NCBI GenBank assembly: GCA_937934185.1
Contig: CALHAB010000013.1
Location: 1-44,798 of the forward strand
Direction: 5' to 3'
DNA length: 44,798 bases
DNA from: an uncultured Ignavibacterium sp.
GTDB taxonomy: Bacteria > Bacteroidota > Ignavibacteria > Ignavibacteriales > Ignavibacteriaceae
Below are positions 19,934 through 25,770 of this stretch, piece by piece. Position 1 is the first letter of the stretch. Every line of letters begins with the position of its first letter. Both the position numbers and the translations under genes were made by a program. Under the pieces are notes generated by a model that did not search any database, was not told the DNA's origin, and was given only the letters and a program-made list of their open reading frames with translations.

Positions 19934-20338
19934 ATGAATATGAAAATAATTTTCAAAATACCTCTTCTTCTTTATGTTTTAATTTTCATCCCGGCTTGTG
20001 ATGATACAATCACTAATCAGGATGTTGATAATATGATTATTCCAAATTCCAATGTTAGCTTCTCTCAGCATATTTATCCCGTATTTCAGGTTAAGTGTTT
20101 TAGTTGCCACGGAAACGGAATATATGAAGCTGGTCTGGATCTTACTCTTCGATCAAGATTTGTTGATGGGAGAATTGTAGTTCCCGGAGATACATTAACA
20201 AGTATTCTAGTTTGGAGAATTGACAGACCTCCGAGAGCAGGATTTAATCCGATGCCACCGGAATTTATGCCTCAGTTAACACCCAATCAGATTAAAGGAA
20301 TTAAGATTTGGATTGCTGAAGGTGCCTTAGATAATTAA
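19934..20338 (+). CDS. Mono-haem c-type cytochrome-like lipoprotein
   Basis: A 134-residue protein with a type II signal peptide (MNMKIIFKIPLLLYVLIFIPAC, Cys22 in IPAC) and a single haem-binding motif, CFSCH (residues 55-59). The region SQHIYPVFQVKCFSCHGNG, then GLDLTLRSRFVDG, VPGDTLTSILVWRI and MPPEF...LTPNQIKGIKIWIAEGA, matches the small cytochrome domain also seen at the front of planctomycete-type cytochrome proteins; the Met in the MPPEFMP segment could be the distal ligand. Likely an outer-membrane-anchored periplasmic electron carrier. It stands alone and overlaps the convergent reductase gene by 4 bp. Confidence 0.82.
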   Translation: MNMKIIFKIPLLLYVLIFIPACDDTITNQDVDNMIIPNSNVSFSQHIYPVFQVKCFSCHGNGIYEAGLDLTLRSRFVDGRIVVPGDTLTSILVWRIDRPPRAGFNPMPPEFMPQLTPNQIKGIKIWIAEGALDN

Positions 20339-21327
20339 ATCCATTTCATTTCTTTGTACCATTCAACTGTTCTTTTTATTCCTTCATCAATTGAAATATT
20401 CTGATGATAACCAAGATCTCTGATTGCTTTCGAAGTATCGCAAATCCAATATTGCTGTGTTATGTCTTTTGCCTTTTCAATATTCAATGTTGCCGGCTTC
20501 GAACTGAACATTGCTGCAAATTGTGCAACTGCAGCAATTGTATAAACCAAAAAGTGTGGAACTTTAATGACAATCGGTTTTTTACCAATAATTTTTGCAG
20601 TGATGTTATTTATCTGAGGCCAGGTATAAAATTCCTCTGAACTTATGAAATAAATTTTTCCAATTGCAATATCATTTGTAGCAGCGAGATAAAAGCCATT
20701 TACCAAATCCTGAACATGAATTAAACTTAATTTCTTTTCATTAAAACCTATTGTAGTAGTTAATCCTTTACTAAATGTCTTGAAGTATATAAATATCTCA
20801 GTATCTCTTTCACCATAGACCGCAGGTGCACGGCAGATTGTTACAGGTAACTGATCTTTAAATGAAAGAACCAACTTCTCTTCTTCTAATTTGCTTTTGC
20901 CATAAGTGGTAATTGGTTTACACTCAGACTCTTCATTAACCGGTTTTCCATCATAAGATGGACCTGTAACTGTTTGGCTGCTTACTACCAAAAATCTTTT
21001 CAGATTAGCTCCGCTTTCTAATGCTGCTTCAATCAGAGTTCTGGTGGTTTCAACATTTCCTTTAAAGTAGCCTTCCCTGGTTTTTGATTTCACTACACCA
21101 GCAACATGAAATATATAATCTGAATCTTTAATTACTTCTTTCAAAGCTTCCTTATTATACAATCCGCAATCGTATATTTTAACATCTTTACCTTGAAGCC
21201 ATTTCAGATCAGAGGATTTTCTTGTAATGCATCTTACTTCATAACCTTTGTCAAGCAATAAGTCAACTAAATGACTACCGACAAAACCGGTTCCTCCGGT
21301 AACAACAGCAACTTGTTTATCTCCCAT
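20335..21327 (-). CDS. NAD(P)-dependent epimerase/dehydratase, candidate ceramide reductase (CerR-like)
   Basis: A 330-residue extended short-chain dehydrogenase. It has the Rossmann loop [13 protein letters not shown] (TGxxGxxG, 10-17), active-site Ser around 116-117 (VVSSQTVTG) and the YxxxK pair Tyr142/Lys146 in TYGKSK. The C-terminal half has a hydrophobic stretch ([17 protein letters not shown]) compatible with membrane association. By itself it could be any sugar or steroid-type SDR. It is divergently adjacent to a serine palmitoyltransferase and near a ceramide-synthase-like protein; in Caulobacter a gene annotated as an epimerase/dehydratase (cerR) performs the keto reduction of ceramide synthesis. 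That function is inferred from context. Confidence 0.75.
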
Positions 21328-21432
21328 ATACTCCGTCTTAATTTGATTTTACAAACTTATATTTTAATTTTCGCCGACAAAATTACTAAAAAGAATAATT
21401 ATCCTTTAATATTGTATAATACAGGAGGAATT

Positions 21433-22623
21433 TTGGACTTATTCAAAAAGTGTTACGAGTTCACAAGAGCTGATGAAGTTAAAGCAATGGGGGTTTATCC
21501 ATATTTCAGACCAATCGAAGAAAATGAAGGACCTGTCGTTAAGATTGAAGGTAAGAGAATCATAATGGCTGGCTCCAACAATTATCTTGGGCTGACCGGA
21601 CATCCGAAGGTTAAAGAAGCAGCAATTAAAGCTGTTGAAAAATACGGAACAGGCTGCTCAGGTTCACGTTATCTCACTGGCACACTTGATTTACACATCG
21701 AGCTTGAATCAAGACTAGCTAAATTTTTCAATACCGAAGCTGTTTTACTTTACAGCACTGGTTATCAAACAGCACAAGGTATTATCCCAACACTTGTTCA
21801 GAGAAACGAATATGTCATTTCAGATAAAGATAATCATGCTTGTATTGTTGCTGGTACTTTGATGACTAAAGGTTCAATGGGAGAATTAGTTCGTTATAAA
21901 CATAATGATATGGATGACCTTGAAAGAGTCATTTCAAAAATTCCGCTTGATGCAGGAAAGCTGATCGTTAGTGATGGTGTATTTAGCACTGGTGGTGAGA
22001 TTGTTGAATTGCCTCGCTTGAATCAAATTGCCAAAAAATATAATGCGAGAATTCTTATTGATGATGCTCACGCAGTAGGTGTAATTGGAAAAGGTGGAAG
22101 AGGTACAGCAAGTGAGTTCAATCTTGAAAAAGAAGTGGACCTCACCATGGGAACTTTCAGTAAGACTTTCGCTTCTTTGGGTGGATTTGTTGCTGGTGCA
22201 GAAAGAGTTATTAACTATCTTAAGCATTTTTCATCGGCTTTGATTTTCAGCGCTTCGCCTACCCCTGCTTCTGTAGCTGCTGCTTTAGCTGCTTTGGATA
22301 TACTTGAGAAACACCCTGAATTAGTTAATAAATTAATTGACAACGCAAATTATATGAGAACAAATCTTCGTTCTCTGGGTTTCAATGTTCTTGATGGAAG
22401 AACAGCTATTGTACCAGTAATCGTTGGTGACGATGCATTAGCTTTTCAAATGTGGAGAATGCTTTATGATAACGGTGTTTTCGTAAATGTATTTATATCT
22501 CCTGGTGTACCTCCGGGCAGACAAATGATGCGTACAAGCTATATGGCTACACATGAAAAGAGTCATCTTGATGAAATTCTTAATGTGTTTGAAACAGCCG
22601 GTAAAAAACTTGGAATCATATAA
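21433..22623 (+). CDS. spt: Serine palmitoyltransferase-like alpha-oxoamine synthase
   Basis: A PLP-dependent enzyme that condenses serine with an acyl-CoA to 3-ketosphinganine, the first step of sphingolipid synthesis. The track start (21271) is an artefact overlapping the divergent gene; a TTG at 21433 four bases after AGGAGG gives 396 residues, the normal length. Seen: [10 protein letters not shown] near residue 21, [47 protein letters not shown], and [13 protein letters not shown] with the PLP lysine (about K244). The [10 protein letters not shown] front and KHNDMDDLE segments resemble Bacteroides SPT more than KBL or BioF, but those relatives cannot be excluded by eye. An intrinsic terminator follows. 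Confidence 0.85.
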
Positions 22624-22640
22624 CCAAATTCATTCCTGTG

Positions 22641-22674
22641 ATAGCATACTCTTTTGAGTATGCTATTTTTATTT
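22641..22674 (+). terminator. Intrinsic terminator after the SPT-like gene
   Basis: ATAGCATACTC (22641-22651) pairs perfectly with GAGTATGCTAT (22656-22666) over a TTTT loop and is followed by TTTTATTT. It begins 17 nt after the SPT stop and ends just before the Shine-Dalgarno (AAGAGG) of the next gene. Confidence 0.85.
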
Positions 22675-22687
22675 AAGAGGTTTATCA

Positions 22688-23809
22688 ATGAGTGAAATAA
22701 AAATTTCAACAGTTAAAACAAAATCCGATTTAATGCGGTTTATAAAATTTCAATGGAAAATTTACAAAGGTGACCCATACTGGGTTCCGCCTTTGATAAT
22801 GGATAGGAAAAAACTTTTAAGTAAAGAAAAGAATCCCTTTTTCAAACACGGTGATGCTGAATATTTTCTTGCGGAAAGAGATGGAGAACTTGTAGGCAGA
22901 ATTGCCGCAATAAGAAATGACCTGCACAATAAATATCATCACGATAAGGTTGGTTTCTTTGGTTTCTTTGAAAGCATCAACGATCAGAAAGTTGCCAATG
23001 CTTTATTTGATGCAGCAAAGAATTGGTTAAAAGAGAGAGGATTTAATGCAATGCGCGGTCCGGCAAATCCATCAAGTAATGATGAGTATGCAATGCTGAT
23101 TGATGGCTTTAACGATTCACCAAGACTGCTAATGCCTTACAATCCACTTTACTACATTAATCTTTGCGAAAATTATGGATTTAAAAAAGCTAAGGATCTT
23201 TATGCTTATAGTCTTGAACACGACAAAGTTGTTTCTTCTGATAAAGTAAGAAGAGTTGCTGAGATTGCAGCTAAACGAACAGGCATAAAAATCACTTCAT
23301 TGAATATGAAAGATTTTAAGAATGAGCTTATGAAAGTTAAATATGTTTATAACAAAGCATGGGCTCCCAATTGGGGATTCGTTCCGATGACTGATGAAGA
23401 GATTGACGCTGCTGCAAAAGATCTAAAACCACTTGCTGAACCTTCACTTGTTTTGTTTGGCGAGATAAACAATCAGTTGGTTGGTTTTGCTCTTGTGATG
23501 CTTGACTACAATCAAGTCTTTAAGGAAATGAACGGACATCTGTTCCCTTTTAATTTTATCAAGCTATACACAAAAAAGAAAAATATCACCTGGGCAAGAA
23601 TAATTACTTTAGGTATTATTCCTGAATATCAAAGGAAAGGTTTGGATGCAGTTTTCTATTGGGAAATTGTAAACCGCGCTGCTAAAGTTGGAATTTATAA
23701 AGGCGAAGCAAGCTGGATACTCGAAGACAACGATATGATGAATCGCGGTGCAGAAGCTCTCAATGCAGAAATCTATAAAAAATATCGTGTATGGGAAATT
23801 CCTATCTGA
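22688..23809 (+). CDS. GNAT-fold acyltransferase-like protein, candidate bacterial ceramide synthase
   Basis: A 373-residue protein. The N-terminal half carries the block WKIYKGDPYWVPPLIMDRKKLL, NPFFKHGDAEYFLAERDGELVGRIAA and KVGFFGFFES, followed by MRGPANPSSNDEYAMLIDGF and PYNPLYYINLCENYGF. The C-terminal half has a GNAT motif-A-like segment, TLGIIPEYQRKGLDAVFYWE (about 307-326). The family is usually annotated only as N-acetyltransferase or hypothetical. Recalled knowledge: the ceramide synthase of Caulobacter (bCerS) is a GNAT-type acyltransferase encoded near spt and cerR. With those two partners adjacent here, N-acylation of a sphingoid base is the best guess. The next gene overlaps it by 19 bp. 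Confidence 0.72.
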   Translation: MSEIKISTVKTKSDLMRFIKFQWKIYKGDPYWVPPLIMDRKKLLSKEKNPFFKHGDAEYFLAERDGELVGRIAAIRNDLHNKYHHDKVGFFGFFESINDQKVANALFDAAKNWLKERGFNAMRGPANPSSNDEYAMLIDGFNDSPRLLMPYNPLYYINLCENYGFKKAKDLYAYSLEHDKVVSSDKVRRVAEIAAKRTGIKITSLNMKDFKNELMKVKYVYNKAWAPNWGFVPMTDEEIDAAAKDLKPLAEPSLVLFGEINNQLVGFALVMLDYNQVFKEMNGHLFPFNFIKLYTKKKNITWARIITLGIIPEYQRKGLDAVFYWEIVNRAAKVGIYKGEASWILEDNDMMNRGAEALNAEIYKKYRVWEIPI

Positions 23810-25770
23810 AAAAGATTTTAATTTATTCAGTTTTATTTTTTACTTCTTCAATATGTTTTGCTCAATTCGATTCAAATAAAATTGATTTAATTGAAACTAC
23901 TGCTAAAAGAGAATTCGATAAAAATATTTTATATAAATATCTCTTATCATCTGACAGCACTGATATTATTGCTGCTCTTTTATCCATTTCTCATTCCGAG
24001 GACACTTCATTCGTTCAGGACTTAACTAAACTTAATTTTAACAAATATGGTAAATGGATTTCCTTTGCATTAGGCCAGATTGGGAATTCTTTTTCTTCCA
24101 AAGAATTTCTTTTTGATAAATTAGCTCAGAACGACTGTAATTGCTCAGAGTTTATCTTTAGCGCTCTTGGAAAAACAGGAAATCAAACTGCCCTTGCAGA
24201 ACTAATAAACTTTTACAATGAACATCCGGAAATTGAAGGAATCGAGGAAGCTATACTTCAATTTCGTAATAGAAATATAACAGATGAACGAAGCAAGGAA
24301 ATTTTAATAAACGAATTCAATAATTCTAAATCATCATTCGAGAGAAAGAAAAAAATTTTATTCACACTTGCAAGGTTAGGCAGTAATAGTTTATTAAATA
24401 GTGAGTTAATTAAAATACTTTCCAAGAGTAATGATAATGAAATGCTTCAGTTAGTTCTGATGAATTTCAGAGTTCAGAAATATTTTCCTGATAATTCTGA
24501 ACTGATAGACAAGCTTTTCAACGAAGATGATGAAGTTAGAATAGAATTAATAAAAGCACTTCCTTACTCAAAAGCAACAAATGAAGTACTTAAGCTTTTC
24601 ACATTGATCTTATCAGATACAACAATGAATGAAAATATTTTGATTGAAACACTCAGAGCACTTCAAATTCAAAAATGGGAAACTGACTTATTGCATAATT
24701 ATGGCATCGCGGCTCTTCTTAAACAGATAATTAAAAACAAGGAGAAAACTTTTATAGTTACTGAAGCGATTAGATCATATTCGCATCTTTATGGAACCAA
24801 AGATTTAAGTCAGGATACTTTACTCATAAGGAACCTATCAGAAATTAACCTAATTCAATTGTTAGTTATTGAAAGTAATGATTTACAATTTTCCTCTTTG
24901 CTCAACCATTATAGTAGAATTTCAGCACCAAAAGAAAAACTTAATGCTCTGGAAATAATTTTGAATCTGAGTAATGAATTTTCAGGAGATAAAGACTTCA
25001 ATAATTTTATTTTTAATGAACTCCAATCAGAAGATCCTGCAGCTATTTCTATTATTGCAGATGGAGTTGATTCAGTGTTTATTTCGAATAATTCTGATAT
25101 GCTCTTAAAAATAATTCAGAGTCAAGCTAATAAATTCAAGCACAGCTCAGATTTTATTGAAGCAGAGATATCATTGATCAATCTTGCGGGAAAGATTTCC
25201 GATGATTATCAAAGAAAATTAATTGCAGATTTATCTGATACACAACTTTATTCTCTAAGAAAATTCTTAAAGAAATTTAATCCTGCAATAGGGGCAATCA
25301 ATAAATCTTTCGATAATTTATCAAAGCTTCTACGGGATGCGTTTAATTATTCCGGCGCAATAATAAAAACCAACAAAGGTGCTATCGAAATAAAATTCAG
25401 GCCGGAATTAGCTCCGATAACTGTAGGTAATTTTATCTTTCTTGCAAAGAATAATTTTTATGACGGAATAATTTTTCACAGAGTTGTTCCGGGGTTTGTA
25501 ATACAAGCTGGTGATCCAACAGGAACCGGCTGGGGCGGACCTGGTTATGAGATTATTTCTGAATTTTCGCCAGAAGAATTTAGAACGGGTTCAGTTGGAA
25601 TCGCAAGTGCCGGAAAAGATACCGAAGGTTCGCAATTCTTTATTATGCAAGGTTATTATCCACATTTAAATTCAAGATACACATTATTTGCAGAAGTGAT
25701 AAGCGGACTTGATGTTGCAATGAGAATATCTGAAGATGATCAGATTATTTCAATTGAAATAGTGAAATAA
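23791..25770 (+). CDS. Secreted HEAT-repeat / cyclophilin-type peptidyl-prolyl isomerase fusion
   Basis: A 659-residue exported protein. After a signal peptide (YLKKILIYSVLFFTSSICFAQ) there are about 480 residues of alpha-helical HEAT-like repeats (for example FALGQIGNSFSSKEFLFDKL, FSALGKTGNQTALAELINFY, EVRIELIKALPYSKATNEVL). The last 140 or so residues are a cyclophilin domain: AIIKTNKGAIEIKFRPELAP, FYDGIIFHRVVPGFVIQAGD (catalytic Arg in FHRV), GSQFFIMQG and RYTLFAEVISGLDV. All core cyclophilin motifs are intact. It probably folds or chaperones envelope proteins in the periplasm, with the HEAT array as a binding surface. The ATG lies 19 bp inside the preceding acyltransferase gene, indicating coupled translation. 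Confidence 0.88.
   Translation: MGNSYLKKILIYSVLFFTSSICFAQFDSNKIDLIETTAKREFDKNILYKYLLSSDSTDIIAALLSISHSEDTSFVQDLTKLNFNKYGKWISFALGQIGNSFSSKEFLFDKLAQNDCNCSEFIFSALGKTGNQTALAELINFYNEHPEIEGIEEAILQFRNRNITDERSKEILINEFNNSKSSFERKKKILFTLARLGSNSLLNSELIKILSKSNDNEMLQLVLMNFRVQKYFPDNSELIDKLFNEDDEVRIELIKALPYSKATNEVLKLFTLILSDTTMNENILIETLRALQIQKWETDLLHNYGIAALLKQIIKNKEKTFIVTEAIRSYSHLYGTKDLSQDTLLIRNLSEINLIQLLVIESNDLQFSSLLNHYSRISAPKEKLNALEIILNLSNEFSGDKDFNNFIFNELQSEDPAAISIIADGVDSVFISNNSDMLLKIIQSQANKFKHSSDFIEAEISLINLAGKISDDYQRKLIADLSDTQLYSLRKFLKKFNPAIGAINKSFDNLSKLLRDAFNYSGAIIKTNKGAIEIKFRPELAPITVGNFIFLAKNNFYDGIIFHRVVPGFVIQAGDPTGTGWGGPGYEIISEFSPEEFRTGSVGIASAGKDTEGSQFFIMQGYYPHLNSRYTLFAEVISGLDVAMRISEDDQIISIEIVK

What the first reader, a model, noticed from the sequence alone, without database searches (positions are those of the whole stretch)
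20335..23809. Compact candidate ceramide/sphingolipid biosynthesis locus: CerR-like SDR, SPT-like synthase, GNAT-type ceramide synthase candidate
Three neighbouring genes match the three enzyme classes of the bacterial ceramide pathway known from Caulobacter (spt, bcerS, cerR). Seen: a Bacteroides-like SPT of normal length with the [12 protein letters not shown] site, an extended SDR with [10 protein letters not shown] and YGKSK, and a GNAT-fold protein with the WVPPL / FFGFFES / MRGPANPS blocks. Established: SPT makes 3-ketosphinganine; a GNAT-type acyltransferase and an epimerase-annotated reductase complete bacterial ceramide. Inference: this organism makes dihydroceramides, with the reductase divergent from the other two genes. 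The acyltransferase would normally be annotated as hypothetical or acetyltransferase.
Basis: partly seen in the sequence, partly recalled or inferred. Interest (0 to 1): 0.75.

Follow-up and report, generated by a model that had tools for sequence, protein, structure and literature searches.

The report
Bacterial ceramide-making gene trio
Three neighbouring genes in an uncultured Ignavibacteria bacterium almost certainly encode the known three-enzyme bacterial route to ceramide-type membrane lipids; that route is already known from many phyla, but in two sister families the first two enzymes are fused into one protein, which bears on a disputed point about the order of the steps.

Summary
In detail: an extended SDR (20335-21327, -), a serine-palmitoyltransferase-type enzyme (21433-22623, +; TTG start behind AGGAGG) and a tandem-GNAT acyltransferase (22688-23809, +) lie at the stated coordinates. 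In trees the PLP enzyme falls with solved SPTs and apart from Kbl/BioF and from cysteate acyltransferases (CFAT). The GNAT falls with spt-linked acyltransferases of many phyla and with the bCerS orthologues of Sphingomonas and E. coli. The SDR falls, with moderate support, with CerR and spt-adjacent SDRs. SPT and GNAT genes co-occur in 112 Bacteroidota genomes outside the class (73 both, 36 neither, 3 mixed). About 115 of 119 sampled Ignavibacteria carry the SPT. So the window holds the Spt-bCerS-CerR ceramide pathway: a new member of a known kind, since Spt-like genes are already reported from 38 phyla. No activity or lipid has been shown. The new point is outside the window: in 17 genomes (two families, seven genera) SPT and bCerS are one 799-947-aa protein of single origin. 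This supports direct hand-over of 3-ketosphinganine to the N-acyltransferase, i.e. acylation before reduction, an order the literature calls unsettled. I found no published account of this fusion in the open-access library.

The parts
20335..21327 (-). CerR-like extended SDR (candidate ketoceramide / 3-ketosphinganine reductase), 330 aa
   Evidence: Pfam Epimerase 2.3e-37; best NCBIfam HpnA 150.5 bits, cut-off 367.65, as for rhodobacterial CerR controls; grouped with spt-adjacent SDRs and CerR; beside spt in 62 of 112 Ignavibacteria genomes
21328..21432 (.). 105-bp divergent intergenic region, probable bidirectional promoter (not tested)
   Evidence: coordinates; inference
21423..21428 (+). 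Shine-Dalgarno AGGAGG for the SPT gene, 4 nt before the TTG start
   Evidence: sequence
21433..22623 (+). serine palmitoyltransferase-type alpha-oxoamine synthase (Spt), 396 aa, PLP lysine in GTFSK (K244 of the protein)
   Evidence: PDB: Sphingobacterium SPT 387 bits against 290 for Thermus BioF/Kbl and 240 for CFAT; trees; SPT-side residue at all six columns that separate SPT from Kbl/BioF
22688..23809 (+). tandem-GNAT N-acyltransferase, bCerS homologue, 373 aa, 64 bp downstream of spt on the same strand
   Evidence: 33% to E. coli YghO and 32% to the Sphingomonas spt-locus GNAT; tree; AlphaFold2 pLDDT 94.1 and Foldseek hits to tandem GNATs

Best explanation
The three genes encode the bacterial (dihydro)ceramide backbone pathway. 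The PLP enzyme (Spt) condenses L-serine (possibly also alanine or glycine) with a fatty acyl thioester to a 3-keto long-chain base. The tandem-GNAT protein (bCerS) N-acylates that ketone directly, giving ketoceramide. The SDR (CerR) reduces the 3-keto group to dihydroceramide. Shown here: enzyme family memberships, co-occurrence, co-location and, in relatives, fusion of the first two enzymes. Inferred: substrates, products, the acylation-before-reduction order, and that the organism makes such lipids.
For: SPT family: PDB ranking, ML trees with Kbl/BioF and CFAT, discriminating residues. bCerS: tree with rhodobacterial orthologues named in PMC9386255 as 'aca'/yghO, tandem-GNAT fold. CerR: tree. 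Functional linkage: the trio near-universal in the class; co-occurrence of SPT and GNAT 73/2/1/36 in 112 Bacteroidota genomes; trio clusters in distant phyla in other arrangements and in Aureispira and Rubrobacter plasmids. Order: 17 natural SPT-bCerS single ORFs with 19-38-aa linkers and intact GTFSK, single origin (100/99 for each half); the SDR is never beside the fusion.
Against: Score below the curated NCBIfam SPT cut-off (494.6 against 640). SDR only 23-27% identical to rhodobacterial CerR. No activity or lipid data for any carrier in this class were found. In Bacteroides a different, classical SDR (BT_0972) reduces 3-ketosphinganine before acylation (PMC9278070), so the reductase and the order can differ between lineages.
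Confidence: 0.85

Rival explanations
1. The same three enzymes make ceramide in the eukaryote-like order: the SDR reduces 3-ketosphinganine first and the GNAT then acylates sphinganine.
For: One published model for Caulobacter and the BT_0972 activity support this order in other bacteria; the window SDR has no visible signal peptide, so a cytoplasmic reductase acting early is possible.
Against: SPT is fused to the GNAT, not to the SDR, in 17 genomes, and the SDR is not near spt there; accumulation of oxidised ceramide in a Caulobacter cerR deletion (cited in PMC11087976).
Confidence: 0.2
2. The PLP enzyme prefers alanine or glycine, so the products are 1-deoxyceramides or related lipids.
For: 1-deoxyceramides were abundant where anaerobic Bacteroidota with Spt-like genes occur in the Black Sea (PMC11334938); residue columns here do not settle amino-acid preference.
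Against: No sequence evidence either way; nearest solved relatives are named serine palmitoyltransferases.
Confidence: 0.15
3. The PLP enzyme is a cysteate fatty acyltransferase and the locus makes sulfonolipids.
For: CFAT belongs to the same superfamily and occurs in the same phylum.
Against: CFAT scores 240 bits against 387 for SPT; a real Bacteroidota CFAT scores 720 to the CFAT structure, and such proteins form a separate 100/100 clade apart from L231; window motif TFSK, not TFAK.
Confidence: 0.03
4. The PLP enzyme is a Kbl or BioF homologue and the neighbours are unrelated.
For: Shared superfamily; scores to Kbl and BioF models are high.
Against: Trees (100/99 split), discriminating columns, a second, lower-scoring match to the SPT model in the same genome at C129, linkage and fusion to the GNAT.
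Confidence: 0.02

Closest known systems
Caulobacter crescentus / rhodobacterial spt-bcerS-cerR ceramide pathway (Stankeviciute 2022, as cited in PMC11087976; PMC9386255)
   Same: Same three enzyme classes; window proteins share clades with the E. coli and Sphingomonas orthologues.
   Different: No dedicated acyl carrier protein or acyl-ACP synthetase gene next to spt here; SDR divergent from spt-bcerS; identity only 23-36% to the rhodobacterial proteins.
Spt-like clade B of Black Sea MAGs (PMC11334938)
   Same: Spt-like proteins co-located with bCerS and CerR homologues in many uncultured phyla including Bacteroidota; the window very probably belongs here (not tested against their sequences).
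   Different: That paper's main text does not mention Ignavibacteria; no fusion came up in its passages or in the paper searches.
Bacteroides/Sphingobacterium SPT (PDB 3a2b, 8guh)
   Same: Closest solved structure, 387 bits.
   Different: Window SPT lies outside that clade; Bacteroides has the classical SDR BT_0972 with 3-ketosphinganine reductase activity.
Aureispira anguillae plasmid pAUEa locus (NZ_AP026868)
   Same: Identical divergent layout SDR / SPT-GNAT; 47, 65 and 44% identity.
   Different: Saprospirales plasmid, annotated only as oxidoreductase, aminotransferase and hypothetical protein.

Membership tests
Serine palmitoyltransferase (SPT) | Groups with characterised SPTs apart from Kbl/BioF and CFAT | tested here: met
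   SPT clade 100/99, 96/86 with CFAT in the tree
Serine palmitoyltransferase (SPT) | PLP lysine in GTFSK and SPT-type discriminating residues, ~400 aa | tested here: met
   [15 protein letters not shown]-side residue at 6 of 6 columns; 396 aa
Serine palmitoyltransferase (SPT) | Passes a curated NCBIfam SPT model (NF047600, NF047599 or NF047603) | tested here: not met
   494.6 against cut-off 640, 347 against 500, 293 against 670. The models are tuned to narrower clades (Bacteroides SPT passes at 700.5, E. coli SPT at 599.9), so this is a naming threshold rather than a biochemical feature
Serine palmitoyltransferase (SPT) | Condenses serine with a long-chain acyl thioester | not testable with these tools
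   needs an enzyme assay
bCerS (bacterial ceramide synthase) | Clade with bCerS of spt loci | tested here: met
   98/83 clade with Sphingomonas and E. coli orthologues and spt-linked GNATs of many phyla; bootstrap had not fully settled
bCerS (bacterial ceramide synthase) | GNAT fold | tested here: met
   pLDDT 94.1; best PDB folds are tandem GNATs, E 5e-14
bCerS (bacterial ceramide synthase) | Direct comparison with Caulobacter CCNA_01212 | not tested
   Caulobacter sequence was not obtained; Sphingomonas and E. coli orthologues used instead
bCerS (bacterial ceramide synthase) | N-acylates a long-chain base | not testable with these tools
   needs an enzyme assay
CerR | Extended SDR with TGxxGxxG and YxxxK | tested here: met
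   [15 protein letters not shown]; Pfam Epimerase
CerR | Clade with rhodobacterial CerR to the exclusion of other extended SDRs | tested here: inconclusive
   grouped at 91/93 apart from 3wj7, one Ignavibacteria paralogue and sugar epimerases; few outgroups, long branches
CerR | Periplasmic, inner-membrane-associated (as in Caulobacter) | not testable with these tools
   no signal peptide visible; same is true of the E. coli and Sphingomonas CerR sequences
HpnA hopanoid-associated epimerase | Passes TIGR03466 | tested here: not met
   150.5 against 367.65
Kbl / BioF | Clade with Kbl/BioF | tested here: not met
Cysteate C-fatty acyltransferase | Clade with CFAT, TFAK motif | tested here: not met

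The most novel reading that the evidence does not exclude
Ignavibacteria as a class make ceramide-type lipids by acylation before reduction, and two of their families have turned the first two steps into one bifunctional 'ketoceramide synthase' (SPT-bCerS fusion of single origin) that channels 3-ketosphinganine straight into N-acylation.
Probability: 0.65. Interest if true: 0.6.

Novelty: new member of a known kind. Interest (0 to 1): 0.42.

Why it matters
The window adds Ignavibacteria, a class for which the searches here found no sphingolipid data, to the likely sphingolipid producers, and explains genes whose Aureispira and Rubrobacter relatives are annotated only as aminotransferase, oxidoreductase and hypothetical protein. 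The natural fusion found in its relatives gives a single protein with which the disputed order of bacterial ceramide synthesis could be tested in one tube.

Tried and rejected
Kbl, BioF and CFAT identities for the PLP enzyme. HpnA for the SDR. A genome-contig scan with an alignment that included rhodobacterial and Bacteroides GNATs failed for lack of conserved blocks and was redone with closer sequences. Two candidate CFATs (L157, L170) proved not to be CFAT; true CFATs came, except L231, which I labelled CFAT from its search score but which groups elsewhere. A 5556-aa 'fusion' in G178 is a masked run of N, and the 620-aa frame in G181 showed no second enzyme by eye. Surveying Planctomycetota for further fusions was not possible with this tool. 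Conserved gene neighbourhood within Ignavibacteriales is not by itself evidence, because the flanking genes are syntenic too; distant phyla and the fusion carry that argument.
Full report
OBSERVATION. The PLP enzyme's listed ATG (21271) overlaps the divergent SDR gene. A TTG at 21433 behind AGGAGG gives a 396-aa protein, the usual SPT length. The gap to the GNAT gene is 64 bp on the same strand; the gap to the divergent SDR is 105 bp. All named motifs are present. The window is contig C13 of an 86%-complete, 2.84-Mb genome; the closest named relatives found by the GNAT are Ignavibacterium, Ignavibacteriales and Melioribacter MAGs.

THE PLP ENZYME. By sequence its best solved relatives are Sphingobacterium SPT (387 bits), then Thermus BioF/Kbl (290), Sphingomonas SPT (253), Kbl (about 229-250) and cysteate C-fatty acyltransferase (240). 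It misses the curated NCBIfam SPT cut-off (494.6 of 640), so I tested the family by tree. With Kbl, BioF and other AOS enzymes the window protein sits in a 51-protein clade (100/99) that holds both the Bacteroides/Sphingobacterium and the Sphingomonas/E. coli SPTs. I then looked for true CFATs in Bacteroidota (14 loci fetched); the one searched against the PDB scores 720 bits to CFAT 28eh. With these in the tree the SPT group remains one side of a branch (96/86). Six of the seven CFAT-labelled rows form their own 100/100 clade; L231, which I had labelled CFAT from its search score, groups elsewhere. Six alignment columns separate the SPT group from Kbl/BioF completely, among them the residue after the PLP lysine (S/T against A/G); the window has the SPT-side residue at all six. 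A second, lower-scoring match to the SPT model lies elsewhere in the genome (C129, 337 bits).

THE GNAT. It has no NCBIfam name and no PDB relative by sequence. An AlphaFold2 model (pLDDT 94.1) matches tandem-GNAT acyltransferases. It is 33% identical over 98% of its length to E. coli YghO, which lies beside a spt-acpR-epi-aasR operon and is the 'aca' acyltransferase of PMC9386255, and 32% to the Sphingomonas spt-locus GNAT. In the tree it groups with these and with spt-adjacent GNATs of many phyla (98/83), apart from a second GNAT clade. That second clade is not free of spt: one Bacteroidota family (L160) has it between SPT and SDR, so acyltransferases of both clades may serve SPT.

THE SDR. 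It is an extended SDR whose nearest curated model, HpnA, is far below its cut-off; the E. coli and Sphingomonas CerR behave alike. The tree joins it with spt-adjacent SDRs of Gemmatimonadota, Zixibacteria and Acidobacteria and with rhodobacterial CerR, apart from sugar epimerases and 3wj7, at 91/93 with long branches. I call this membership probable, not shown. No signal peptide is visible; Caulobacter CerR was reported periplasmic.

LINKAGE. In 119 sampled Ignavibacteria about 115 have the SPT, 116 a GNAT match and 114 an SDR match (the SPT count leaves out genomes with only Kbl-like matches). SPT and GNAT are adjacent or fused in 84 of 114, the SDR lies within 3.8 kb of SPT in 62 of 112, and all three cluster in 47 (tables transcribed by hand). 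In 112 further Bacteroidota genomes SPT and this GNAT type go together: 73 both, 36 neither, 3 mixed, Fisher p 9e-26, not corrected for phylogeny (transcribed, with score thresholds chosen after seeing the gap). In named genomes the same genes adjoin in different orders in other phyla and on Aureispira and Rubrobacter plasmids. Within Ignavibacteriales the flanks are syntenic too, so only the distant cases count as independent.

FUSION. In all five sampled genomes of one family and 12 of 13 of another (the thirteenth is 67% complete and lacks both), seven genera in all, SPT and GNAT are one open frame of 799-947 aa without a stop, with a linker of 19-38 aa and the GTFSK site intact. Each half forms a single clade in the sampled rows (100/99), so one origin is the simplest reading. 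The fused genomes checked keep a separate second GNAT copy, and the SDR is not near the fusion. In the 148-genome phylum sample no fusion outside these families appeared apart from artefacts.

MECHANISM. Spt makes the 3-keto base, bCerS acylates it, CerR reduces it. The literature states that the order of acylation and reduction is disputed. Fusion and tight pairing of SPT with the acyltransferase, but not with the reductase, favour acylation first in this group. This is inference from gene architecture; I found no enzyme of the class that has been assayed. The amino acid used (serine, alanine, glycine) and the acyl donor are open; no dedicated acyl carrier gene lies beside the trio.

NOVELTY. 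Spt-like genes, many with bCerS and CerR nearby, are already reported from 38 phyla of Black Sea MAGs, so the window is a new member of a known kind. A search for Ignavibacteria with sphingolipids returned six papers, none about this pathway by title or abstract (not read in full), and searches for the fusion found nothing relevant; the library is open-access only.

Noticed in passing
L031-L047 (for example L032 7102-9543, L033 281-2683): Natural SPT-bCerS fusion proteins in two Ignavibacteria families, apparently of single origin, with a second stand-alone bCerS copy retained; part of the argument but outside the window.
   Followed up: yes
L234 4290-6783, L235 4413-6870, L236 5429-8544: In three of five loci with a cysteate fatty acyltransferase-like gene, a GNAT of the second (paralogue) clade lies next to it: a candidate N-acyltransferase for sulfonolipids.
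   Followed up: partly
window 19934-20338: Small c-type cytochrome-like protein (PSCyt1, CFSCH) convergent with and overlapping the SDR stop codon, conserved beside the SDR in other Ignavibacteriales. Caulobacter CerR is thought to need an unknown electron donor; the convergent orientation gives no proof of a link.
   Followed up: no
L061 1008-2210: A second, 50%-identical SPT-clade protein in one Ignavibacteriales genome (G079), grouping with a sequence from a MAG labelled Caldisericaceae rather than with its own class.
   Followed up: no
NZ_CP108162.1 398649-399761: Streptomyces protein annotated as a bifunctional SDR / PLP-dependent enzyme hit by the SPT query: a possible fusion of the opposite kind, not examined.
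   Followed up: no
window 23791-25770: HEAT-repeat plus cyclophilin-type PPIase gene whose start overlaps the end of the GNAT gene; relatives at the same place are only 33-40% identical.
   Followed up: no
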